The translations under genes were made by a program, and so were the position numbers. The notes below the pieces were generated by a model that saw only the letters and a program-made list of their open reading frames with translations, was not told the origin of the DNA and searched no databases. A stretch of DNA of 34,150 bases from Candidatus Enterousia onthequi (GTDB lineage: Bacteria; Pseudomonadota; Alphaproteobacteria; Rs-D84), in assembly GCA_018064365.1 (NCBI GenBank), contig JAGHVJ010000020.1, positions 1 to 34,150 on the forward strand. Reading direction: 5' to 3'. Shown here piece by piece: positions 1 to 11,352 of the stretch. Position 1 is the first letter of the stretch. Each line of letters starts with the position of its first letter.

Positions 1-204
1 ATGAACACATCTTTAACAGGTTATGCCAAAACAACCGATTTGTTAGACGAAAACAACAAATTAAAAGTCGCATTACCTGATTCTGTTGTTACCACAGAAA
101 AGATGAACACATCTTTAACAAGTTATGCCAAAACATCCGATTTACTAGATGAAAACAACAAATTAAAAGTCGCATTACCTGATTCTGTTGTTACCACAGA
201 AAAG
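1..204 (+). repeat. 102-bp tandem repeat inside the coding region (2 copies plus partial third)
   Basis: Bases 1-102 and 103-204 differ at only a few positions; a third copy starts at 205 and diverges after about 36 bases. The unit is a multiple of three, so copy-number change keeps the reading frame. Confidence 0.9.
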
Positions 205-2013
205 ATGAACACATCTTTAACAGATTATGCCAAAACAACCGATATTACAGAGACAATAAACACAACATTAAATGGGACAGGTGAGGGCAGTTTTGCCCAA
301 CGTTTGGCCAACGCGGGTGCAATTACAACAAACAATTTGGAAACATCTGGAATTATTACCAGCAGCAACATTATAAATAAATTGCCAGACACAGTTATCC
401 GTAGCGACAATCTACCCTCTAACATTATTACAACAAGTAATTTGGCTAACTCTGATATAAAAAACGCTTTAACCGGCGCAGGATTCGCACAAAGTTCAGA
501 TATAACAGCAATGCAAAATACTTTATTAAACGGGGACGAAAACACTGCTGGCAGTATAGCAAACAAAGTAAAAACCGCTGGTTTTGCAAAAACAACCGAT
601 GTCGTCACAAAAGACAATTTGGTATCGCAACTAACAAATGAAAACACAACAAATGCATTAACATCTATCGGTTTTGCAAAAAAAAGCGACGTTGTTACAA
701 AAGATAATTTGGTATCACAATTAACAAGCAGCAGCGCAAAAAGCGCGCTGGCTGATGCAGGCTTTGTAACAAACACAGATATCAGCAATCGCGCTTTGAC
801 AATGGCAGATTTATCTAACATGCTTTCAAACAAAATACTTGTTGCAGATGCCACTGGAGCTATTGGATTAAACCCAGAAAAAACACAAACCAGTGTTGCA
901 ACAAAATTGAGTGCCGTAGGTAATTTAAACAATATGACAGCAACCACAAATATCGCAACAACCGTGGCTAATGTGACAATTACAGCAACAGACCCATCGA
1001 CAATTACAGAAGCAACAAAATGTAATGAAATTGACTATATGTTCTGGAATTCAGAAGCAAACAAATGCCAAAAATGTCCTGATGGAACAGAGTTCATTGG
1101 TGGCACAGAACGTTGCAAATGCAAAGACATTTTAACCATATTTGATAAAACAAAAGGAATGTGCATCGAACAAAGTATGGACCAAGCAAAATGCAATATT
1201 ACACCAAATATGTATTGGAACACAAAATACAGTGATTGTTCTACATGTCCCGATGGCACATTTTATAAAGACGCCTGCTTATGTGAAAAAGAAAACCACA
1301 TGTTGAACATATACACCGGCGAATGCACAGAATGTAACCCTGAATATGGTTTGGAATACAACGAAGAAACAAGAACATGCTCTTGCAAAAACGGTGCGAC
1401 AGTTAATTATCAAGCATGGGCAGAAAACCCGAAACAAGCATGTGGATCCATTGATCTGGCACAAGCCTGCAATTCTACAGAAAACAAATATTGGAACACA
1501 AAAAACAATCAATGTTTTGAATGCCCTGAAAACACATATTACAAAAGAAACGCCTGTTTATGTGAAAAAGAAAACCATATGTTGAACACATACACTGGTG
1601 AATGCACAGAATGTAACCCTGAATATGGTTTGGAATACAACGAAGAAACAAGAACGTGCTCTTGCAAAAACGGTGCAGCACTTAATCATCAAATGTGGGC
1701 AGAAGATCCAAAACAAGCCTGTGGCTCTATTGATCTGGTTCAGACCTGTAATTCTACAGAAAACAAATATTGGAACACCCAAGAGAATCTGTGCCTTGCA
1801 TGTCCCGAAAACACATATTACAAAAACGGGGAATGCTTATGTGAAGAGCACAATCACATGTTGAACACATATACTGGGAAATGTATGGAATGTATCTCTG
1901 ATTATGGTTTGCAATACAACGACGAAACGCGCACATGCTTTTGTGAAAACAGCAAGACAATTGACCACCAAAAATGGATAGAGAAACCAGAATTAGTGTG
2001 TGGCGAGAAATAA
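1..2013 (+). CDS. Cys-rich repetitive surface/secreted protein, 5' end cut off by window
   Basis: I do not recognise a named family. The N-terminal part is built of about 34-residue repeats carrying YAKTTD / FAKTTD and SVVTTEK / VVTKDN motifs; the first two (1-102, 103-204) are almost identical. From about residue 340 it becomes Cys-rich, with three repeats of about 92 residues (starting near 1192, 1468 and 1747) containing a YWNT segment, a C-x2-CP pair, CLCE, a TGEC-x2-C motif and TRTCSCKNG. These resemble GCC2/GCC3- or EGF-like disulfide modules, so an extracytoplasmic location is likely. The ATG at base 1 is probably internal, because the same ATG recurs inside each later repeat (103, 205) in the middle of a continuous frame; signal peptide and true start would lie upstream. 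A clean intrinsic terminator follows. Function is unknown; adhesin or fibre-like is only a guess from the repeat architecture. Confidence 0.8.
   Translation: MNTSLTGYAKTTDLLDENNKLKVALPDSVVTTEKMNTSLTSYAKTSDLLDENNKLKVALPDSVVTTEKMNTSLTDYAKTTDITETINTTLNGTGEGSFAQRLANAGAITTNNLETSGIITSSNIINKLPDTVIRSDNLPSNIITTSNLANSDIKNALTGAGFAQSSDITAMQNTLLNGDENTAGSIANKVKTAGFAKTTDVVTKDNLVSQLTNENTTNALTSIGFAKKSDVVTKDNLVSQLTSSSAKSALADAGFVTNTDISNRALTMADLSNMLSNKILVADATGAIGLNPEKTQTSVATKLSAVGNLNNMTATTNIATTVANVTITATDPSTITEATKCNEIDYMFWNSEANKCQKCPDGTEFIGGTERCKCKDILTIFDKTKGMCIEQSMDQAKCNITPNMYWNTKYSDCSTCPDGTFYKDACLCEKENHMLNIYTGECTECNPEYGLEYNEETRTCSCKNGATVNYQAWAENPKQACGSIDLAQACNSTENKYWNTKNNQCFECPENTYYKRNACLCEKENHMLNTYTGECTECNPEYGLEYNEETRTCSCKNGAALNHQMWAEDPKQACGSIDLVQTCNSTENKYWNTQENLCLACPENTYYKNGECLCEEHNHMLNTYTGKCMECISDYGLQYNDETRTCFCENSKTIDHQKWIEKPELVCGEK
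1192..2010 (+). repeat. Three about 276-279-bp in-frame Cys-rich repeats
   Basis: Units begin near 1192, 1468 and 1747 at a Cys-Asn codon pair followed by a conserved YWNT segment. The first and second units are nearly identical over long stretches (for example the segment ending SCKNGA), which indicates duplication or gene conversion. Confidence 0.85.
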
Positions 2014-2142: not shown

Positions 2143-2526
2143 GTGATTATCGGAATAGGAATTGATTTAGTTGAAAGCAATCGTTTCTTGGATTGGTCTG
2201 CATTTAAAAAACAACGCATATTTACCAAAAACGAATTAGAATACGCCGACAACGACAATGCCAAAGCAGAAAAACATCTTGCCAATTTTTGGGCCGCGCG
2301 CGAGGCTTGTTTAAAAGCCCTCAATACAGGATTTGGCGAAAGCATAAGTTTTTCAGATGTATCTGTAATACATAATGATATGGGGGCCCCAGAATTATTA
2401 TTAAATGGTGGCGCAAAAACAGCATTAAAAGAACTATGCAACGGCGCAAAAACAAAAATACACTTATCTATTACCGATCAATCTGATTATTCCGCAGCAA
2501 TGGTTGTAATAGAAACTATTGAATAA
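2143..2526 (+). CDS. acpS: Holo-[acyl-carrier-protein] synthase
   Basis: AcpS transfers 4'-phosphopantetheine from CoA to the serine of apo-ACP, activating it for fatty acid synthesis in the cytoplasm. The protein has the normal length (127 aa). The N-terminal GIGIDLVE motif carries the metal-binding Asp8, and FWAAREACLKAL carries the second metal ligand, Glu54, with the catalytic-region Lys. It starts with GTG at 2143, chosen because AAGGGGG sits 6 nt upstream and the conserved IIGIGID begins immediately. It is transcribed alone after a terminator. Its 3' end overlaps the convergent 712-residue protein gene by 11 bp, so there is no room for a terminator between them. Confidence 0.96.
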   Translation: MIIGIGIDLVESNRFLDWSAFKKQRIFTKNELEYADNDNAKAEKHLANFWAAREACLKALNTGFGESISFSDVSVIHNDMGAPELLLNGGAKTALKELCNGAKTKIHLSITDQSDYSAAMVVIETIE

Positions 2527-4654
2527 TAATCGGAGGATAACAATCCGTTCCACCATCCGGGCAACAAACACCTTGACCGTTTTCTATTAAATATGTCTCA
2601 CCAGGGCAACAACCATCTGCATCAGGTGCGATTCCGCCATCACACAAATTTTGTTCATCCTGAGTCGCATCTACAAAAACATCATCCTGACTAACATTAT
2701 ATTCCGGTTTATTCACAACCGGAGCTTTTTCCGCCGAAGGAACTACTGATTCATCCTGGATTTCTTCTGATTTTTCCACAAACTCTTCCGTTTCTACACC
2801 AGTCATTTCATCCTTTGCAGACCCAACCTGTGGAACATCTGAAACTTCTGCAACCTTATTCAAAGAATCTTCAACAACTTTTTCTAACATCGGTTTCTTG
2901 TTTTCTACTATATCTTCACCACTAGCCACGAATGGATTAGAATCATCAACCACATTTTCATCTTTCACAGCATCAGACTGTTCAACCACAGGCGCATCAT
3001 CAGTAACCAATGTTGGTAATACATTATCCGATATATTTGAACGCTGATATAACCATAAGGTAAAGACAGACAAAGCAATCAAAACTAACAACAAAACATA
3101 ATATAAAAATCCAGGTTTATGTTGCACATTTGTGGTCTGTTTCGGAATTTCCGCAACAACACTAGGCGCAGTTCCAGGTATCATTGGACGCACTTGGGAA
3201 CTTATACCAGAAACAGGCGAAACAACCGTTGATGCAATACTATCGGCATTGTTTTCTGCCAATCCATCCATACTACCTTCGGCTGCGATTATTTCCGGCT
3301 CTTTATTCTCTAAATTAAAAATTTGGCTACTATTATTAGCATCAAAACCTGTTTGGGTTTGACTAACGCTTTGTAATGAATTCAATACACTCGCATTGTC
3401 TTCTGCATCTTGTTCATCGACCTGATTACTATGCTGGGCATTATTCAAAACCTCCGGTGCAGCGGTGTCATACTTTACATCACCATCCAAACCTTCTGAA
3501 AAAACAGAATCTAATTTATCATCATCCTCAGTCTCATAACTTGCGGGCAACTTTACCGCATCTGTTATATCACGCGGAGGTTCAAATTCAATTGCAGGTA
3601 CATGTTTTTCCTTTTCTTCATCCGTTGATACATCAGACACTTCATCCACACGTTCCGGTTCATTTACATCATCATCTATATCAACACCCGACTGATCATC
3701 TGGGACATTTTCATCATATCCAGAATCTTCAACAGACACATCACCAAAATCAATTGGTTTAAAAGCAATATTATCATCTAATATATTTGGGTCTTTATCA
3801 AACAAAGGTTTCACATCTGATTCATCAGCGCCATATTCTGGTTCTTGTAGCAAATCCTGTTCATCATCATCTGCAACATCGTCACCTTTTTCATCATTCA
3901 TATCTTGCAAGTTTGCAACAGGCGCCGCAACGACCATATTATTTTTTTTATCAGACATATTTGGCAACAAATCCAAAACAGATTGAGCCGCATCAATATC
4001 ATCTTGGGCAGTCAACAAACGTTTATTCGCATTTTCCAAACGTTTCTGGGCACGCGCCAATTTATCGTTCAAGGCATCCAATTGAGCCTCGGCCTTTAAT
4101 ATTTTTGCCGCAGATTCTTTTGTTGGCTCACGGCCAACACCACGACGCAACCCCGCAATTTTGACACGTACAGATTTTATTTTAGCCTGCAATTCAACAA
4201 TAGAATCCCCAGTGCGTTCTATTGTTTCTTGTGCATTTTCTGCAACAACCCGAGCCGCAGTCAACCTCTCGTTTGCGGAATTATATGCCGCCATTAAACG
4301 AAAATCCGCCAACTCTTGCAACACTTTTTTCAAGCCATTTCCACTTTTGGATGCACTAATTAAATTATCATAAACAGCCAATTTGTCATACTCGACATCC
4401 AATTTCTGATATTTATTATCTTTCTTTGGACGCACCAACTCTAAATTCATTCCATAATCATTAGCCAACACATCGTCCCACTTGCGATTTCCATAAGACG
4501 ACATCACCAACAACACATTTGGTTTGGTGTCCGTAATCGTCAAATCCAGCACAAACACCAACTTACCTTGATTATCATAAAATGCACGAATGGAATTACC
4601 ACTGATATCATACTCAGTTGGCTTTAACATAACATTTTTCTTCTCACTTGGCAT
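2516..4654 (-). CDS. Coiled-coil, acidic, single-pass membrane protein with Cys-rich tail (unknown)
   Basis: No family recognised. Visible architecture over 712 residues: a folded-looking N-terminal domain (about 1-120), a long charged coiled coil (about 125-230, rich in Ala, Lys, Glu, Leu heptads), a very acidic low-complexity stretch (about 245-480), one transmembrane helix (about 513-535), a second acidic stretch, and a C-terminal Cys-rich tail (about 668-712) with CCPGE and CCPDGG motifs. With no N-terminal signal, the N-terminus is probably cytoplasmic and the Cys tail periplasmic. It starts 21 nt after gcrA with a GGGGG ribosome site, so the two are probably co-transcribed. The tail resembles the Cys motifs of the large secreted proteins elsewhere in the window. 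A scaffold or envelope-linking role is possible but unproven. Confidence 0.85.
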   Translation of the reverse strand: MPSEKKNVMLKPTEYDISGNSIRAFYDNQGKLVFVLDLTITDTKPNVLLVMSSYGNRKWDDVLANDYGMNLELVRPKKDNKYQKLDVEYDKLAVYDNLISASKSGNGLKKVLQELADFRLMAAYNSANERLTAARVVAENAQETIERTGDSIVELQAKIKSVRVKIAGLRRGVGREPTKESAAKILKAEAQLDALNDKLARAQKRLENANKRLLTAQDDIDAAQSVLDLLPNMSDKKNNMVVAAPVANLQDMNDEKGDDVADDDEQDLLQEPEYGADESDVKPLFDKDPNILDDNIAFKPIDFGDVSVEDSGYDENVPDDQSGVDIDDDVNEPERVDEVSDVSTDEEKEKHVPAIEFEPPRDITDAVKLPASYETEDDDKLDSVFSEGLDGDVKYDTAAPEVLNNAQHSNQVDEQDAEDNASVLNSLQSVSQTQTGFDANNSSQIFNLENKEPEIIAAEGSMDGLAENNADSIASTVVSPVSGISSQVRPMIPGTAPSVVAEIPKQTTNVQHKPGFLYYVLLLVLIALSVFTLWLYQRSNISDNVLPTLVTDDAPVVEQSDAVKDENVVDDSNPFVASGEDIVENKKPMLEKVVEDSLNKVAEVSDVPQVGSAKDEMTGVETEEFVEKSEEIQDESVVPSAEKAPVVNKPEYNVSQDDVFVDATQDEQNLCDGGIAPDADGCCPGETYLIENGQGVCCPDGGTDCYPPIIIQ

Positions 4655-4675
4655 TTTTATCCCCCAATTTTATTA

Positions 4676-5311
4676 TTATTTTTTCTTTGGTGCCGTAAAT
4701 TGATACGCCTGGCGACAATGTTCATAGCAATAAGGTTTTCCAACAAACACTGTTTCACCACAAAAATGGAAATTTTCTGAATCCGGATCGCCAATTGGCC
4801 AACGACATTGATTAGGCTTCAACGCGGCCATTTCCAAAGAATGTTGAATAATCCGCTGATGCATAGCCAAATTTTCGCCAGATTTTTTATTTGATTCCAC
4901 AGCACGCGGCAAATGTTTTACAACAGGTTTGTCTTCTGGAACGACCTTTGTTGCCACCTTTTTTTCAACCTTGGATTCCTTGACCGGTTTAGCCACAGGT
5001 TTTTTTTCTGTTTTTTTGGTTGCCACCTTGACCTTGGGCATAACCACAGGTTTCACTGGTGCAATTTTCTTAGAAACGGGCAATTTAGACTTTTTTGCCA
5101 CAGACTTTTTAGGCTCGCCCCCAGATTCCGCCGACGCCTTGCGAACAGTACTGCCAGTTGTAGCTTTTAAATTCCAACCCAAACGGTTCAACTTACCAAC
5201 AACAGCGTTCTTGCTCATTTCCAAGCGCTTACCAATTTCAGAAGTCGACAAACCCTTGCTGATTAAAACTTTTAATTTTTTTAACTTATTTGTATCCCAA
5301 CCAGTTGCCAT
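4676..5311 (-). CDS. gcrA: GcrA family cell-cycle regulator
   Basis: GcrA binds sigma70-RNA polymerase and activates transcription at promoters carrying methylated GANTC sites in Alphaproteobacteria. Residues 1-48 hold the conserved helix-turn-helix: the GWD start, then LSTSEIGKRL and KNAVVGKLNRLGW. The C-terminal 40 residues hold the conserved CRWPIGDP motif and four Cys/His (FCG, YCYEHC). Between them is an unusually long Lys/Pro/Val/Ala-rich linker (about residues 55-135). At 211 aa it is somewhat longer than the Caulobacter protein. The ATG at 5311 follows AAGGGT. A candidate promoter TTGCCT-N18-TACACT (5345-5374) has a GAATC site in its spacer, so the gene may respond to CcrM methylation and to GcrA itself. 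Confidence 0.95.
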   Translation of the reverse strand: MATGWDTNKLKKLKVLISKGLSTSEIGKRLEMSKNAVVGKLNRLGWNLKATTGSTVRKASAESGGEPKKSVAKKSKLPVSKKIAPVKPVVMPKVKVATKKTEKKPVAKPVKESKVEKKVATKVVPEDKPVVKHLPRAVESNKKSGENLAMHQRIIQHSLEMAALKPNQCRWPIGDPDSENFHFCGETVFVGKPYCYEHCRQAYQFTAPKKK

Positions 5312-5324
5312 TTTATAAAAACCC

Positions 5325-5374
5325 TTGTGTTACATATCAATACAAGTGTATCATACATCCGAATCGAAAGGCAA
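5325..5374. promoter_or_regulatory. Overlapping divergent promoters of gcrA and the prepilin peptidase gene, with a GANTC site
   Basis: Plus strand: TTGTGT (5325-5330), 18-nt spacer, TATCAT (5349-5354). Minus strand: TTGCCT (complement of 5369-5374), 18-nt spacer, TACACT (complement of 5345-5350). GAATC at 5361-5365, a CcrM-type methylation sequence, falls inside the gcrA promoter spacer. The two -10 elements overlap, so they may compete. Confidence 0.5.
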
Positions 5375-5383
5375 GGGGGAATT

Positions 5384-5845
5384 ATGTTTTTTTACACTTT
5401 TTTTGTATTACTATTATTGGCTGCTGCATTTTGTGTTTGGCGTATATCTGTGGCGGATTTCCGGCGCAGAATCATTCCTGATGCGTATTTATTTCCGCTG
5501 ATGCTTATTGGATTGGTGATAACACACTTTTTCCCTTGGATATGCAACACTGCCGAATCGGTTGCCGGCGCAGTATTGGGTTACGCTTTGGCGGCAATCG
5601 TCGGAATTATTTTTGAACGTATATCAAAAGATAAAATAAACACCCCAATTGGCATGGGAGACATTAAATTATTGGCTGTTGCCGGATTATGGTTAGGCAC
5701 CACAGGATTATCTATTGCACTAATATTTGCGTGTATTTTTGGCATAATTTGGGGGCGTGCAAAAAAACAAAAATTCATACCATTTGCACCATTTTTATTC
5801 GTAGGTGGATTTTTGTCTTTTATTACAATTTTGTTTTTGTTATAA
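5384..5845 (+). CDS. A24 prepilin peptidase (CpaA/TadV-like)
   Basis: This membrane aspartyl protease processes type IV or Flp/Tad pilin leader peptides. About six hydrophobic segments are visible in 153 residues. The two family aspartates lie in ADFRRRIIPD (near residue 24) and in the GMGDIKLL motif (near residue 90). The ATG at 5384 is preferred over an earlier in-frame ATG because AAGGGGG precedes it and the hydrophobic N-terminus begins there. It is short, as in CpaA proteins, and lacks the N-methyltransferase domain of PilD. No pilin gene is visible in the window, so its substrates are encoded elsewhere. The next gene begins 23 nt downstream, so it probably heads the operon of secreted proteins. 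Confidence 0.9.
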   Translation: MFFYTFFVLLLLAAAFCVWRISVADFRRRIIPDAYLFPLMLIGLVITHFFPWICNTAESVAGAVLGYALAAIVGIIFERISKDKINTPIGMGDIKLLAVAGLWLGTTGLSIALIFACIFGIIWGRAKKQKFIPFAPFLFVGGFLSFITILFLL

Positions 5846-5868
5846 TACAAAACATAAAGGGACAGGGA

Positions 5869-6873
5869 GTGTTGTTTTTGAACCATAATTTTTGTAAATT
5901 TTTGCGAATTTATGGCATTTTTGCATTGCTATTCGTATGCACATTGGCACACGCCGGTCCAACACCATTTTCGCAATATGGCATGATTCAAAATGTTCAA
6001 AATTATTCTTCCAACCCGTTTTATACCCCCGGGGTATACGATGCCGCATATCCAAAAATTGCCTATAATTCCGGTCCTGCATTAAAACCCGCCGATTGCC
6101 AGGTTACCGTATCCACACTAATACAGAACATATGCACCACAAGAAACAATTGTCGCAATACAACATTGGCGGATATCCGGCCTGAAATTATGGTTGCCTT
6201 ATCGAAACTACCAACATACAACTACGCATCCAGTTGTGCTGGGTATATTGACGAAATCTATAAAACATACACAAACAACAATACAAACACCGGCAATGTG
6301 ACACCGACTTCATTTCCATCAGGAACATCTATTACAGTTCCAACAAAGCCGCAAACAGAATACGAAAAACGCGCCTCAGAATTAAAGGCACTGCAACAAC
6401 AAACAAAAAACTCCACGGACAATATTGCTGCAACGGAATTTCCAAAAACATTTGACGATTTATCTTTTACCGAAAAGAACGAAATAAAGCGCGCCGGATA
6501 CGAACCATATAAAGATGCCCAAGTTTATATCCCATTAAACATCGAACGCGATAAAAACGCATACAAATCAACTGCCGAGGCTGAACAAGAAGACGCTCAA
6601 AATGTCGCCGCGTGTATTCAACAATATGGAACTCAAGAACAGGCCGCTGAAGACGCTTTCTTTCAAGCATACAATGAAACCCACGAAATTCCATCAACAG
6701 CGGCATTAAAAAACGCAATTGTAAACGCAATAAAATCTGCATGTACATGCACAGAAAATTCGCGTTTTGCCACCAGTATTCGTGCAACACTGAATGTTCA
6801 ATGTCCAATATCAGACGCCGAAACAACCGCGCAACAATACATTGATAATTTAATTTCACAATTAGGTGCATAA
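5869..6873 (+). CDS. Secreted protein of unknown function
   Basis: No family recognised. The start is uncertain: GTG 5869, TTG 5872 or TTG 5878, all just after an AGGGA ribosome site; all keep the signal peptide, with hydrophobic core IYGIFALLFVCTLAHA and a likely cleavage after AHA. The mature protein of about 305 residues has Cys pairs near its N-terminus (ADC, ICTTRNNC, SSC), a Thr/Asn-rich middle, a charged helical region containing YEKRASELKALQQ, and a C-terminal helical part with CTC and QC. The even Cys content suits disulfides in the periplasm or outside. It is followed 3 nt later by another secreted protein, with which it must be co-transcribed. Confidence 0.85.
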   Translation: MLFLNHNFCKFLRIYGIFALLFVCTLAHAGPTPFSQYGMIQNVQNYSSNPFYTPGVYDAAYPKIAYNSGPALKPADCQVTVSTLIQNICTTRNNCRNTTLADIRPEIMVALSKLPTYNYASSCAGYIDEIYKTYTNNNTNTGNVTPTSFPSGTSITVPTKPQTEYEKRASELKALQQQTKNSTDNIAATEFPKTFDDLSFTEKNEIKRAGYEPYKDAQVYIPLNIERDKNAYKSTAEAEQEDAQNVAACIQQYGTQEQAAEDAFFQAYNETHEIPSTAALKNAIVNAIKSACTCTENSRFATSIRATLNVQCPISDAETTAQQYIDNLISQLGA

Positions 6874-6876
6874 AAA

Positions 6877-7692
6877 ATGAAAAAATTATTTGCAATCTTT
6901 TTTTTGTTACAAATTATACCGATTGTGGCGCACTCTGATACCACAAGCGACGCAAAAAAATACCAATGTATTAACAAAATAAAAAAAGAACATATGCCTG
7001 ATAGCGACGATTTGTTTTGTTTTAATCCCAGTAACAATTCCGCATATTGGGACTGTTTTAAGGTAGATTCTAATGCATGCGTAAAAAACACCACTGTTTG
7101 CATTCTTGGTTCTAATATCGATTTAACAAAAATATCTGTTGTTCACACTAATTCTCTGGATCCTCAAACCAGCCTAACTTTTAATACCACAACATCACCA
7201 GATCGGACACCAGATGGTGCCTATACATTGGATGGTATGTTAATTGGTTATCACACTTGTGCAATATCATACGAAGGTTCCGGATCTGATAATTGGTACA
7301 AGCATTACAACCCAAAAGTAAAAATTTTTACAGAATGTTCTACACAAAAATGGAAAAAAGACGAAACAAAAGATAAAATTCACGAAGTAATGATTATAAA
7401 CAAAAAACCGTTACTAGACGACACAAAAACAAAACCTCTCGAATATTTTGTACAGTATTATTCAACACCAAAATATCCCGACGTTTGTATAGGATATTAT
7501 TGCAAAGATGCAAATGGCAACTATCAAGAACCATGTGCCGACGGTTCTTGTACAGATCCATGTCCTGAACCAGCCCCAGAGCCAGCCCCAAAGCCAGCAC
7601 CAGAGCCTACCCCAGGAAACACAACCCCAGTTCATCGTAACACGGTCAAACCATACTTGGACGCTTTAAAACAAAAGTATGGCATAAAATAA
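6877..7692 (+). CDS. Secreted Cys-rich protein with Pro-rich C-terminal linker (unknown)
   Basis: It starts MKKLFAIFFLLQIIPIVAHS, a typical Sec signal peptide of about 20 residues. The mature part (about 250 aa) contains about 17 Cys in pairs and, near the end, a dense Cys cluster (CIGYYCKD, PCADGSCTDPCP) followed by a PEPAPEPAPKPAPEPTPG repeat of about 18 residues. Such a linker commonly spans cell wall or joins domains. The last 25 residues are basic. I recognise no enzyme motif. Spacing of 3 nt to both neighbours makes this the middle gene of a three-gene secreted set. Confidence 0.85.
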   Translation: MKKLFAIFFLLQIIPIVAHSDTTSDAKKYQCINKIKKEHMPDSDDLFCFNPSNNSAYWDCFKVDSNACVKNTTVCILGSNIDLTKISVVHTNSLDPQTSLTFNTTTSPDRTPDGAYTLDGMLIGYHTCAISYEGSGSDNWYKHYNPKVKIFTECSTQKWKKDETKDKIHEVMIINKKPLLDDTKTKPLEYFVQYYSTPKYPDVCIGYYCKDANGNYQEPCADGSCTDPCPEPAPEPAPKPAPEPTPGNTTPVHRNTVKPYLDALKQKYGIK

Positions 7693-7695
7693 AAT

Positions 7696-10512
7696 ATGCT
7701 AAAAAAATTTTTATTTTTAATAAGCATTTTATTCGCACCATTTATATCTTATGGTGCAGATACATATAGTTTGGACGATTTTGAACGCGGCACAGATAAC
7801 ACCCAATGTGCCAGTAAAATTTTTGCCGACGCATTGCATGCAACCGTAGATACATTAAAAAATTCAGATTCTCAAGAACCACAAGACGCCCAAGATGCCG
7901 ACGGGTCTGAAATCGACACATGGGTTCATTTGGCTTTTTCTATGCCGACAACAATAACAAAAATCTTGGAATGTCCAGAATTACAATCTGCGGACGATAA
8001 CGACACAATTGTTTTTGAAACTGTATCTTATACTTTTCCAAACGGCCGCACTATTGACATAAATTACGAAACACAAAAAAGTGTCCTAAAACAAAAATTA
8101 TTATTAGCAACCAAACCAAAACTGACAACTAACGACATCAATCCCGACATCACCACCGACGTTCAAAACGGCACAGTTTGGGTAAATGTTGATCCCGCAT
8201 GGTATGCTATTTTAATAACAGAACACGATAGTTTATCAAACTATATCGCCCCAAACAAAACAAATGTCTTGGCATTACGATACATAGAAGACAATATAAA
8301 AACACTATACCCACAAAGTCATGGATTTGGCGCATCATGTACTTCGAAATCTGCAATCGCAGGCGATAACGACATGATAAACCTTGCGACGACAAGAACA
8401 GTTGGCGGAGGGCTGCCACGCGAAGAACCACAAACAGATGCAGAAAAAGAGCAAAAAGAAACCGCTGAAAGCAATGATTATTACGTATATGGCGATGCGA
8501 ACTTACAATGGATAACCGGTTTAGAAATCGCAGTTGATGTGGTTATGACCGTCATCACATTTGGTGGCTATGAATTTGTCAATGGCGCATTAAAACTGGT
8601 GCGTGCCACACGTGCTTTTGCCAAGGCACAAAAAGCATTAAAAACATTAAAAAAATCACGTGATGTTATACGATGGATAAAATCATCTAGACGTGCCGAC
8701 GATGTTGCACGTGCTATAAAACTGGCCGACAAAGCAGAAGATGGATACAGTACTATATCCGGAATCAGCAAAACCGCAAATCAAACTGTAAAACAAGTAT
8801 CACATAAACTTGATTTATTACGCGCACGCAAGGCAGACACAAAAGCAATTCGCGCAACAGAACAAGAATTGGAAATCGCGACAAAACAAGCCCAAGCCGC
8901 AGAAAAAGCCGCTGGGACTGCTGAAAAATTAAAATCCGCTAAAAACATTCGAAACAACACAAAAATGACTGCCGAAGAAGCAAAAAATGCAGAAAAAGAA
9001 ATCGAAAATCTAAAAAACGCATACAACACTGAATTAAAAGAATTACAAAAAACACACGCATCAGAATTGTCAGATTTAGAAAAATTATCTGATGTCAAAA
9101 ACTATAAAGAATTGGTCAATGCAAAACGCGAACTGGCACACACTGCATACTTACTTCGCCAAGGCAAAGTCGCATGGCGCGCGAATCGTGGTTTATTGCC
9201 CGTACGCGCGTACCGTGCAGCCAAGGCAACCCGTCAAGGTCTCAAAAGTGCCAAAGGTATGGATAAAGCAATAAAAGTAGTGCGTGCCAACACCAGTGGT
9301 GTTTCTGCAAAAATAAATGATTGGCTATTCCACAACACAATGAAAAATATAAGCGCGATATCCAAGGTTCCTGCCGCAATCAGCGGCCTGAATATGGCTG
9401 TAAAAATTGCAGGCGACATGTATGATTACACAGACGTTTCAACCGGTGATTATACTAACAATATTGATTTAAAACCGTTTTTACTATTGGGCGCTGATGA
9501 ATTGCCTGGTTATGAAAATGTTGTAAATCATGGTATGTGGTTATTCTGGGCCGGCTCTTCAACATCTGCTGCTGATGACGATGCGGCATTTTTACAAGCA
9601 ATGAGTTTTGCTGAAAAATTACATCAAGACTTGGTCGATATCCAACAAGAAAAAGGCGTTGCCACATGCGATGTTGATATATACGTGGTTCGCCCAATCA
9701 TCAGGAATCCTGGCACAGAAAAACAAGAATTATATTATTTATTTATGAACGACACACCTTGGACAACACACGGATATAACGAACCATCAAACGAAAAAGC
9801 AACAGAAACATCTGATAACACCACAACTAACGACAACAATTTTTCATTAGATAGCGACGGCAACCTCACGCTCAGTACCACCACAGGAACAGTGGGGACA
9901 TTAAACAATACAAAATGGATAGAACCGCCATACGATGGAACAAAAATCGGTGGTGCTTGCACAAAACCGTCTTCTTCTGCTGGCAAATTTACAAATGAAA
10001 TTTTAACCACTGGTCGTTACGCATCTATATCACCTGCATTTGAAAAAGCAATGATTACCAAATTCAGAACCGAAGGAGGATGTGTCAACAACCCCGCAGA
10101 CAAATGCGGCTACACTTGTTTTGGGGTATGTGCAACATATTTTCCCCAGGTAAAAAAGAAAGGATTCTCCCGTGCAGATGCCGAAGATATTGCGTATAAC
10201 AGTTTTTGGAAAAAACATAATCTCGACAAATTACCAGACGCAATCAGTGGCGATGTATTTATGGCATTATGGGGCACCGGCAGCAAACCTGCATCTATTG
10301 GGTTATTACAAAAAATCTTAGGTGTTCCACAAACCTCTGTGGTTGACAAAGCAACAATAGAGGCCGCAAAAAATTACCAAGGTGATTTACGCACAAAATT
10401 CTTGAATGCACGTGGCGAAAAATTCAAACACGGACAATCCGAATTCAGTCGCGGATGGTTAAACAGTCTGCAAGTATATCGCGCAAACGGATGTCATACG
10501 ATTTCGGAATAA
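7696..10512 (+). CDS. Large secreted protein with C-terminal GH108-like muramidase and peptidoglycan-binding region
   Basis: Residues 1-20 form a Sec signal peptide (ILFAPFISYGA). Residues 21-265 are a Cys-containing domain of unknown type. A hydrophobic helix (about 270-302) leads into basic and coiled-coil segments (about 300-500, Ala/Lys/Glu rich) and a further hydrophobic helix near 545-575. Residues about 769-938 match the GH108 muramidase family seen in phage endolysins: the EGG motif with catalytic Glu793, the NNPAD motif, an AEDIAYNSFW-like helix, and then the companion peptidoglycan-binding module (LLQKILGVP ... RGWLNSL). Family members are normally about 180-residue stand-alone lysins; here the domain is fused to about 770 extra residues and has four Cys in 17 positions (796, 804, 808, 812), which suggests disulfide stabilisation outside the cytoplasm. 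Proposed role: cleavage of peptidoglycan in the periplasm or in other cells. Domain call confident by motif; biological role inferred. Confidence 0.85.
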   Translation: MLKKFLFLISILFAPFISYGADTYSLDDFERGTDNTQCASKIFADALHATVDTLKNSDSQEPQDAQDADGSEIDTWVHLAFSMPTTITKILECPELQSADDNDTIVFETVSYTFPNGRTIDINYETQKSVLKQKLLLATKPKLTTNDINPDITTDVQNGTVWVNVDPAWYAILITEHDSLSNYIAPNKTNVLALRYIEDNIKTLYPQSHGFGASCTSKSAIAGDNDMINLATTRTVGGGLPREEPQTDAEKEQKETAESNDYYVYGDANLQWITGLEIAVDVVMTVITFGGYEFVNGALKLVRATRAFAKAQKALKTLKKSRDVIRWIKSSRRADDVARAIKLADKAEDGYSTISGISKTANQTVKQVSHKLDLLRARKADTKAIRATEQELEIATKQAQAAEKAAGTAEKLKSAKNIRNNTKMTAEEAKNAEKEIENLKNAYNTELKELQKTHASELSDLEKLSDVKNYKELVNAKRELAHTAYLLRQGKVAWRANRGLLPVRAYRAAKATRQGLKSAKGMDKAIKVVRANTSGVSAKINDWLFHNTMKNISAISKVPAAISGLNMAVKIAGDMYDYTDVSTGDYTNNIDLKPFLLLGADELPGYENVVNHGMWLFWAGSSTSAADDDAAFLQAMSFAEKLHQDLVDIQQEKGVATCDVDIYVVRPIIRNPGTEKQELYYLFMNDTPWTTHGYNEPSNEKATETSDNTTTNDNNFSLDSDGNLTLSTTTGTVGTLNNTKWIEPPYDGTKIGGACTKPSSSAGKFTNEILTTGRYASISPAFEKAMITKFRTEGGCVNNPADKCGYTCFGVCATYFPQVKKKGFSRADAEDIAYNSFWKKHNLDKLPDAISGDVFMALWGTGSKPASIGLLQKILGVPQTSVVDKATIEAAKNYQGDLRTKFLNARGEKFKHGQSEFSRGWLNSLQVYRANGCHTISE

Positions 10513-10573: not shown

Positions 10574-10876
10574 ATGAAAAAATTATTCTTATTTATATTT
10601 GCAATTTGTATAACAAACAATGTGTATGGGTACCAGAAAATATCATCAAACGAACTGGGAATGGGTGATGCACGCAACCAAAACATTGTCGTCAAATGCA
10701 CCACACCTGGGGGACAAATTTCAAACGAAACATGCGCATTACGCAGATACGCAAAATGTACAAACAACAATTGTGCATCATGGGATGTGTGGCGTGATTT
10801 ACGAAACACAACTGCAACATACACAACATGGCAAGATGCAGCCGATGCATGTTGCCGTGCCAAAGGATTACGATAA
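10574..10876 (+). CDS. Small secreted Cys-containing protein (unknown)
   Basis: 100 residues; a signal peptide of about 19 residues (core LFLFIFAICITNNVYG), then an 81-residue mature protein with seven Cys spaced as KC, TCALRRYAKC, NNCASW and ACC. No family recognised. The ribosome site AGGGG lies 7-8 nt upstream of the ATG. The gene lies 61 nt behind the muramidase-domain protein on the same strand and ends at a strong terminator. Having both its own promoter and this position, it could be an accessory or immunity-type partner of that protein, but nothing in the sequence proves it. Confidence 0.75.
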   Translation: MKKLFLFIFAICITNNVYGYQKISSNELGMGDARNQNIVVKCTTPGGQISNETCALRRYAKCTNNNCASWDVWRDLRNTTATYTTWQDAADACCRAKGLR

Positions 10877-10882
10877 ACAAAA

Positions 10883-10909
10883 AAAAATCGCCAGTTATTG
10901 GCGATTTTT
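10883..10909. terminator. Bidirectional intrinsic terminator between the secreted-protein operon and the tRNA cluster
   Basis: An 11-bp perfect stem AAAAATCGCCA / TGGCGATTTTT with a 5-nt loop; T-runs follow on both strands. It ends the plus-strand operon and lies just downstream of tRNA-Val on the minus strand. Confidence 0.85.
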
Positions 10910-10916
10910 ATTTTCA

Positions 10917-10993
10917 TGGTGGATGAGATTGGACTCGAACCAACGACCTCTTCGATGTGAACGAAGCGCTCTAACCAACTGAGCTACACATCC
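10917..10993 (-). tRNA. tRNA-Val (anticodon CAC)
   Basis: Read on the minus strand: acceptor GGATGTG pairs with CTCATCC (one T-T mismatch), D stem GCTC/GAGC, anticodon stem CTTCG/CGAAG with loop TTCACAT giving anticodon CAC (codon GTG), T stem GTTGG/CCAAT around TTCGAGT, encoded CCA end. It is the last tRNA of the cluster. A TrmN6-like enzyme that modifies tRNA-Val in other bacteria is encoded 6.5 kb downstream. Confidence 0.95.
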
Positions 10994-11000
10994 AAAACTT

Positions 11001-11020
11001 TTGGCGCCATGGGCGCCGAA
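11001..11020. other. Stem-loop between tRNA-Val and tRNA-Leu(TAA)
   Basis: Perfect inverted repeat TTGGCGCC / GGGCGCCGAA around CAT. There is no T-run, so it looks like a spacer or processing structure rather than a terminator. Confidence 0.5.
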
Positions 11021-11027
11021 ATAAACT

Positions 11028-11114
11028 TGGTGGGGATAGTGGGACTTGAACCCACACGATCGCAATGATCAAAGGATTTTAAGTCCTCAGCGTCTACCAT
11101 TCCGCCATATCCCC
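11028..11114 (-). tRNA. tRNA-Leu (anticodon TAA)
   Basis: 87 nt with encoded CCA. Acceptor GGGGATA/TATCCCC, anticodon stem GAGGA/TCCTT with loop CTTAAAA giving anticodon TAA (codon TTA), and a long class II variable arm (GATCATTGCGATC). T loop TTCAAGT. Confidence 0.95.
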
Positions 11115-11177
11115 GAGAACTTTTTCATTACCTATTTCTGGCGAACACACAAAACTACACCATACCACAAGTAATTC

Positions 11178-11253
11178 TGGTGGAGCTGATGGGACTCAAA
11201 CCCACGACCTCTACGATGCGAACGTAGCGCTCTATCAACTGAGCTACAACCCC
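11178..11253 (-). tRNA. tRNA-Ala (anticodon CGC)
   Basis: 76 nt with encoded CCA. Acceptor GGGGTTG pairs with CAGCTCC, which includes the G3-U70 wobble that identifies alanine tRNA. Anticodon stem CTACG/CGTAG, loop TTCGCAT, anticodon CGC (codon GCG). Confidence 0.95.
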
Positions 11254-11265
11254 GAAACTTTCTTT

Positions 11266-11352
11266 TGGTGGGCATAAGAAGACTCGAACTTCCAAGGCAT
11301 TGCTACCACTAGTACCTGAAACTAGCGCGTCTACCAGTTCCGCCATATGCCC
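11266..11352 (-). tRNA. tRNA-Leu (anticodon CAG)
   Basis: 87 nt with encoded CCA. Acceptor GGGCATA/TATGCCC, anticodon stem CTAGT/ACTAG with loop TTCAGGT giving anticodon CAG (codon CTG), and a long class II variable arm. It is the first gene of the tRNA transcript. Confidence 0.95.

What the first reader, a model, noticed from the sequence alone, without database searches (positions are those of the whole stretch)
7696..10512. Phage-type GH108 muramidase domain fused to a large secreted bacterial protein
GH108 lysins are normally short, cytoplasm-made phage proteins. Here the domain (catalytic Glu793 and the peptidoglycan-binding module preserved) is the C-terminus of a 938-residue protein with a Sec signal, hydrophobic helices and coiled coil, and has gained four Cys around the active site. 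This architecture could be a secreted antibacterial toxin, a cell-wall remodelling enzyme or a secretion-channel lysin.
Basis: partly seen in the sequence, partly recalled or inferred. Interest (0 to 1): 0.78.

Follow-up and report, generated by a model that had tools for sequence, protein, structure and literature searches.

The report
Exported muramidase fused to lineage-specific protein
A tiny-genome gut bacterium has welded a cell-wall-cutting enzyme, of a type best known from viruses, onto the tail of a secreted protein peculiar to its family; comparison with relatives suggests that this enzyme takes the place of another wall-cutting domain lost from a membrane protein, so it probably serves the cell's own wall rather than acting as a weapon.

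Summary
Confirmed: ORF 7696-10512 (938 aa) has a Sec-type signal and a C-terminal GH108 domain (Pfam E=2.8e-12; catalytic Glu793 invariant in 19/19 relatives; modelled fold matches Brucella SagA). The genome is an 885-kb alphaproteobacterium, probably Ca. Enterousia (order Rs-D84).

Residues 30-691 are a family-specific secreted protein present in 76/78 genomes of the family, normally ending at '..NDxPWTTxE' without GH108. The fusion happened once (7 genomes, GH108 tree 100/99). In 16 other genomes an exported GH108 gene sits beside the host gene, often fused to a copy of the neighbouring P0002 protein (21 linked versus 0.6 expected by chance). These GH108s form one clade, apart from phage lysins and from the cytosolic GH108s of the same genomes.

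Main new result: an inner-membrane protein elsewhere in the genome usually carries its own peptidoglycan-hydrolase domain (endolysin-type, M23 or GH108). Where that domain is missing, the exported GH108 is present in 17/24 genomes, against 6/50 where it is intact (Fisher p=7e-7; Pagel test p=0.004).

Best reading: an exported muramidase for own-wall remodelling that displaces a lost hydrolase. A toxin role is not supported, though not excluded. The machine it serves is unidentified.

The parts
7696..10512 (+). fused ORF, 938 aa: signal peptide, family-specific host protein, linker, GH108 muramidase
7696..7758 (+). Sec-type signal peptide, residues 1-21 (MLKKFLFLISILFAPFISYGA)
   Evidence: sequence inspection and hydropathy; homologous N-termini in relatives
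7783..9768 (+). 'host' region, residues 30-691, found alone as a 555-720 aa protein in most genomes of the family
8500..8580 (+). hydrophobic segment, residues about 269-295
   Evidence: hydropathy; low model confidence there
8581..9330 (+). long helical, coiled-coil-like region, residues 296-545, variable in length among relatives
9769..9945 (+). fast-evolving linker, residues 692-750
   Evidence: model mostly low confidence over 697-725; dN/dS 0.3-0.8 where dS could be estimated
9958..10500 (+). GH108 muramidase domain, residues 755-935
   Evidence: dN/dS 0.10-0.20
10072..10074 (+). codon of catalytic Glu793
   Evidence: aligned with the EGG motif of SagA
5384..5845 (+). prepilin peptidase (Peptidase_A24), first gene of the operon and the only one in the genome
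5869..6873 (+). P0002, secreted Cys-containing protein; copies of it are fused to GH108 in relatives
6877..7692 (+). P0003, secreted protein of a variable slot between P0002 and the host gene
10574..10876 (+). small secreted Cys-rich protein (100 aa), conserved last gene of the operon with or without GH108
10883..10909 (+). intrinsic terminator, 12-pair stem plus T tail
4676..5311 (-). GcrA-type cell-cycle regulator, conserved divergent neighbour
2516..4654 (-). conserved coiled-coil protein with one TM helix and a Cys-rich tail, next to gcrA in nearly all genomes

Best explanation
The protein is an exported peptidoglycan hydrolase. Shown: a GH108 muramidase domain under purifying selection, with its catalytic Glu, joined once in evolution to the C-terminal end of a secreted protein specific to this family, with even cysteine counts in all the fused forms. 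Shown statistically: this exported GH108 is retained where a core two-TM inner-membrane protein has lost its own C-terminal hydrolase domain. Inferred: after Sec export the GH108 domain folds in the oxidising periplasm, two or three disulfides stabilise it, and it cuts the MurNAc-GlcNAc glycan strands of the cell's own wall. The host protein (coiled coil, hydrophobic segments) holds it at one site, so that it takes over wall remodelling that relatives do with a membrane-tethered endolysin-type or M23 domain. Which structure needs the local opening (divisome, type IVb pilus, type IV secretion channel) is open.
For: GH108 identity and fold. Glu793 invariant; Cys755/933 invariant; Cys796/808 in 18/19. 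Even Cys counts of 4 or 6 in all seven fused GH108s and mostly even in the separate exported ones, against 0-2 in phage or cytosolic GH108. dN/dS 0.10-0.20 in the fused clade. Host protein in 76/78 family genomes and 0/18 of other families in the order; unfused forms stop at NDxPWTTxE. GH108 within 3 kb of the host gene in 21 genomes against 0.6 expected. GH108 fused instead to P0002 copies in G096, G082, G086, G107 and G103, that is, domain fusion between genes of one operon. FUSED is one clade at 100/99, inside a locus-linked clade of 26 rows at 100/99. Membrane protein carries an endolysin-type domain (PHROG 873 E 1e-21 to 1e-24; PDB 7q47, 9vvp), M23 or GH108, or none. Domain missing: 17/24 have the exported GH108; intact: 6/50; Fisher p=7e-7; Pagel LR 15.3, p=0.004. 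Three of the seven remaining domain-less genomes have a separate endolysin-type gene or fragment beside the membrane protein, two of them clearly with a signal.
Against: No activity data. Six genomes keep both hydrolases and four have neither in the loci examined, so displacement is a tendency, not a rule. Nearly all genomes also keep a Slt70-like lytic transglycosylase, so the role is specialised. Draft MAGs can lose or split genes. The displaced partner is unlinked in the genome, so shared location or function is inferred from co-distribution. Two relatives with the same host protein (G040, G042) have lost the fused domain, although they keep an unlinked exported GH108.
Confidence: 0.62

Rival explanations
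1. Machine-specific lysin: the GH108 opens the wall for a type IVb pilus (as PilT lytic transglycosylase does in R64-type pil operons) or for the VirB-type secretion channel. A special case of the best explanation.
For: The operon starts with the genome's only prepilin peptidase. The genome has PilO, PilP, PilQ/GspE and PilR/GspF homologues, a secretin and a VirB11 ATPase. In R64-type pil operons a lytic transglycosylase (PilT) is encoded together with the prepilin peptidase (PMC6232867).
Against: GH108 is at this locus in only 21 of 76 host-bearing genomes although the pilus genes look universal in the sample. The displaced membrane protein lies next to a ZapA-like gene and housekeeping genes, not pilus genes. 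In some genera the peptidase is on the other strand from the host gene.
Confidence: 0.22
2. Secreted antibacterial or contact-dependent toxin: the host protein is a carrier that delivers the muramidase into neighbouring cells.
For: Signal peptide; modular C-terminal enzyme; hydrophobic segment plus coiled coil resemble pre-toxin regions; weak fold similarity to alpha-pore-forming toxins (best E=0.02); DUF847/GH108 proteins have been listed as putative T6SS effectors (PMC3235180).
Against: Only one C-terminal domain type is found on the host in all seven fused genomes, and the host is conserved without it. The downstream secreted protein is present whether or not GH108 is, so it is not a dedicated immunity gene. 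No PADLOC or delivery-domain match. No significant host-core fold match. The link with loss of a membrane-tethered hydrolase points to the cell's own wall.
Confidence: 0.1
3. Non-functional or neutral fusion: GH108 picked up by read-through, without a selected role.
For: Absent from most genomes with the host protein; lost from the host again in G040 and G042.
Against: Catalytic Glu and Cys pairs retained in every fused member; dN/dS 0.10-0.20, similar to the host domains, with a fast-evolving linker between.
Confidence: 0.06

Closest known systems
GH108 muramidase Brucella abortus SagA (PDB 7dnp) and Neisseria NMB1012 (2is5/2ikb)
   Same: Catalytic EGG motif, same predicted fold over nearly the whole domain (TM 0.73 on SagA), cellular rather than phage enzymes
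   Different: SagA is about 180 aa with nothing attached; here the domain ends a 938-aa secreted protein and carries conserved cysteine pairs
Phage GH108 endolysins (PHROG 315; Mannheimia, Rhizobium, Vibrio phages)
   Same: Homologous catalytic domain (24-31% identity)
   Different: Short, few or no cysteines in the four compared, no signal peptide in three of these; they branch outside the exported clade
PilT/BfpH-type lytic transglycosylases of type IVb pili
   Same: Peptidoglycan hydrolase encoded near a prepilin peptidase
   Different: GH108 not SLT fold; optional; physically fused to another secreted protein
Membrane-tethered hydrolases of the same genomes (two-TM protein with endolysin-type, M23 or GH108 C-terminus)
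   Same: Exported wall hydrolase domain on the C-terminus of a family-core protein; anti-correlated with the exported GH108
   Different: Inner-membrane anchor instead of a Sec-secreted coiled-coil carrier; mostly an unrelated catalytic domain
Polymorphic toxins
   Same: Conserved exported N-terminal part plus C-terminal enzyme
   Different: No variable C-terminus, no dedicated immunity gene, no known delivery domain

Membership tests
GH108 (PF05838) | Pfam match above the curated cut-off | tested here: met
   47.4 bits against 21.2, E=2.8e-12
GH108 (PF05838) | catalytic Glu in the E-G-G motif | tested here: met
   Glu793, invariant in 19/19, aligned with the EGG of SagA
GH108 (PF05838) | lysozyme-like GH108 fold | tested here: met
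   pLDDT mostly 88-98 over 790-938; Foldseek 7dnp E=1.5e-4, TM 0.73 on target
GH108 (PF05838) | C-terminal PG_binding_3 module | tested here: inconclusive
   No Pfam match in this protein; matched in 4/19 relatives; fold match covers that part of SagA
GH108 (PF05838) | muramidase activity | not testable with these tools
   needs enzyme assay
Phage endolysin | phage gene neighbourhood, short cytosolic protein | tested here: not met
   Neighbours are bacterial core genes; signal peptide; separate clade
Polymorphic/antibacterial toxin | variable C-terminal toxin domains on a conserved carrier | tested here: not met
   host either ends near PWTTxE or carries GH108 only
Polymorphic/antibacterial toxin | cognate immunity gene tied to the toxin | tested here: not met
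   the downstream gene is present regardless of GH108
Type IVb pilus lysin (PilT-like) | encoded with the prepilin peptidase | tested here: met
   single A24 peptidase heads the operon
Type IVb pilus lysin (PilT-like) | SLT lytic-transglycosylase fold | tested here: not met
   GH108 fold; the genome's one SLT match lies elsewhere, in a frame of about 620 aa
Type IVb pilus lysin (PilT-like) | present wherever the pilus genes are | tested here: not met
   at the host locus in 21 of 76 host-bearing genomes while pilus genes look universal in the sample

The most novel reading that the evidence does not exclude
The secreted P0002/P0003/host operon headed by the only prepilin peptidase is a surface apparatus by which these reduced-genome bacteria, suspected obligate symbionts or parasites of other cells, hold on to partner cells, and the fused muramidase (or the membrane-borne endolysin-type domain it replaces) locally opens the partner's wall to obtain nutrients.
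Probability: 0.1. Interest if true: 0.85.

Novelty: new variant of a known kind. Interest (0 to 1): 0.56.

Why it matters
It shows an exported cellular GH108 clade with conserved cysteine pairs and a new domain architecture. It also shows a clear case of enzyme displacement: in one family of minimal gut bacteria, three unrelated peptidoglycan-hydrolase folds are exchanged on a membrane protein, and one of them also moves to a secreted protein encoded elsewhere. This makes a testable link between uncharacterised secreted proteins that are nearly universal in this family and wall remodelling. Rs-D84/Enterousia have been proposed to be obligate symbionts or parasites (PMC12306168) but lack any described envelope machinery, so these core operons are candidates for what holds or opens partner cells.

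Tried and rejected
1) Phage origin of this GH108: rejected; best phage hits are 24-31% identical, no relative was confirmed in viral contigs, and the clade is distinct. 2) Assembly artefact or frameshift fusion: rejected; seven genomes. 3) Host fold: the full-length search gave only generic helical matches, several of them alpha-pore-forming toxins, at E of 0.02 or worse; a second model of the compact host from another genome gave none below E=0.24, so no pore-forming claim is made. 4) PilT-type complementarity: nearly every genome has one SLT frame of Slt70 size, and its presence does not track GH108. 5) Accelerated evolution of the host on the fusion branch: the long stem is at least partly lineage-wide, since LpxB and GcrA are also more divergent; dropped. 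6) Host beyond the family: 0/18 in other families of the order and no genus but its own among 240 class genomes. 7) Four domain-less genomes (G051, G088, G093, G113) with no hydrolase found in the fetched loci remain unexplained; genome searches were exhausted.

Full report
WHAT IS THERE. The window lies on contig C23 of an 885-kb, 37-contig genome. Relatives with names are rumen MAGs and an alphaproteobacterium. ORF 7696-10512 encodes 938 aa. Pfam finds GH108 at 791-862, PHROG 315 at 761-929, and the PDB relatives are SagA and NMB1012. The AlphaFold model is confident over the GH108 part (pLDDT mostly 88-98), and its best structural match is Brucella SagA 7dnp. Glu793 is invariant.

THE HOST PART. 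Residues 30-691 belong to a secreted family found in 76 of 78 sampled genomes of the taxonomic family, in none of 18 from other families of the order, and in no genus but its own among 240 class genomes. In almost all other genomes it ends within a few residues of NDxPWTTxE; in the fused clade the chain continues through a fast-evolving linker into GH108. No fold or domain match was found for it.

THE OPERON. In nearly all relatives the order is: A24 prepilin peptidase, P0002, P0003 slot, host, optional GH108, 100-aa Cys-rich protein, with gcrA and a coiled-coil protein divergent upstream. In the window a strong terminator follows at 10883-10909. The peptidase is the only A24 enzyme in the genome. 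PilO, PilP, GspE/PilQ and GspF/PilR genes are on C17, a secretin on C32 and VirB11 on C22.

GH108 MOVES WITHIN THE OPERON. Of 74 GH108 matches in the order sample, 21 lie within 3 kb of the host gene (0.6 expected): five fused and sixteen separate. The separate ones have N-terminal signals and carry either a full copy of P0002 (G096, G082, G086, G107, G103) or a P0002-derived segment. All these plus two unlinked copies and a basal member form one clade (100/99); the seven fused domains are one subclade (100/99). Phage lysins and the cytosolic GH108s elsewhere in the same genomes are outside. The host tree places G040 and G042 inside the fused clade: they have lost the fused domain but have an unlinked exported GH108 of another subtype beside a peroxiredoxin gene.

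SELECTION AND EXPORT. dN/dS of the GH108 domain within the fused clade is 0.10-0.20, like the host (0.04-0.35 where dS could be estimated), with a faster linker (0.3-0.8). Cysteine counts are even (4 or 6) in all fused GH108s and mostly even in the separate exported ones; non-exported relatives have 0-2. Cys755/933 is invariant and Cys796/808 nearly so. Cys804 and Cys812 occur together only here and in RUG13827 among fused members. Disulfide pairing itself was not measured.

DISPLACEMENT. The basal GH108 of the clade (G006, G007) is fused not to the host but to a two-TM inner-membrane protein. That membrane protein is present in 57/60 family genomes and normally carries a C-terminal wall-hydrolase domain: an endolysin-type domain with the motif WRNNNPGNIR (PHROG 873, E down to 7e-24; PDB endolysin 7q47), M23 in G001 and G014, or GH108. 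In 24 genomes, including this one, it stops at 145-217 aa without that domain. Of these 24, 17 have the exported GH108; of 50 with the domain only 6 do (Fisher p=7e-7). A Pagel correlated-evolution test on the host tree (58 tips) gives LR 15.3, p=0.004; the fitted rates say that GH108 is lost fast where the membrane-borne hydrolase is intact and slowly where it is gone. Among the seven domain-less genomes without GH108, G091 and G085 have a separate endolysin-type gene with an apparent signal near the membrane protein and G059 a fragment of one; the other four are unexplained.

INTERPRETATION. Shown: domain identity, N-terminal signal, conservation, single fusion, linkage, statistical displacement. 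Inferred: periplasmic action on the cell's own wall, positioning by the host protein, disulfide pairing. The displacement argues for a housekeeping wall role more than a weapon. A link to the type IVb pilus or the T4SS is possible but GH108 is optional while those genes look universal in the sample.

LIMITS. Genomes are drafts of uncultured bacteria; the displaced partner was found by following one lead, so the association deserves testing in complete genomes. No activity has been shown.

Noticed in passing
G000:C22:76910-77329 (L202:8908-9357): Two-TM inner-membrane core protein beside a ZapA-like gene, radC, map, holA and lptE; in relatives it carries an endolysin-type, M23 or GH108 domain, here none. 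Its own function is unknown.
   Followed up: partly
L086:5734-10521; G000:C32:290-790; L222:7241-8200: R64-like type IVb pilus genes (PilO, PilP, GspE, GspF, secretin) and a VirB11 ATPase; PMC12306168 mentions type IV pili for UBA9783 but not for Rs-D84.
   Followed up: partly
L058:10814-11671 (G000:C2): Phage Mu F-like domain fused to GH108 plus PG_binding_3 (285 aa), followed by a second secreted GH108-like protein.
   Followed up: partly
L066:8225-8752, L070:7708-8274 and others: Stand-alone 175-190 aa GH108s without a signal peptide in non-phage surroundings, with an altered motif (EGGYTDG..DDEPTNMGI); they look domesticated.
   Followed up: no
L093:170-1171 and 4319-5977; L095:13143-14237 and 8181-9875: P0002 and P0002-GH108 copies in one genome have nearly identical N-terminal halves, suggesting recent duplication or gene conversion.
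   Followed up: no
window 1-2013: C-terminal part of a large repetitive surface protein with Cys-rich repeats, 600-1357 aa long in relatives.
   Followed up: no
window 10917-11352: Four tRNA genes (Val, Leu, Ala, Leu) on the minus strand between the operon and the conserved 966-aa secreted protein.
   Followed up: no
L091:12044-13618, L064:11147-12634: The P0003 slot holds unrelated proteins in different genomes, one type being a paralogue of the host's C-terminal domain, another a glycine-zipper protein.
   Followed up: partly
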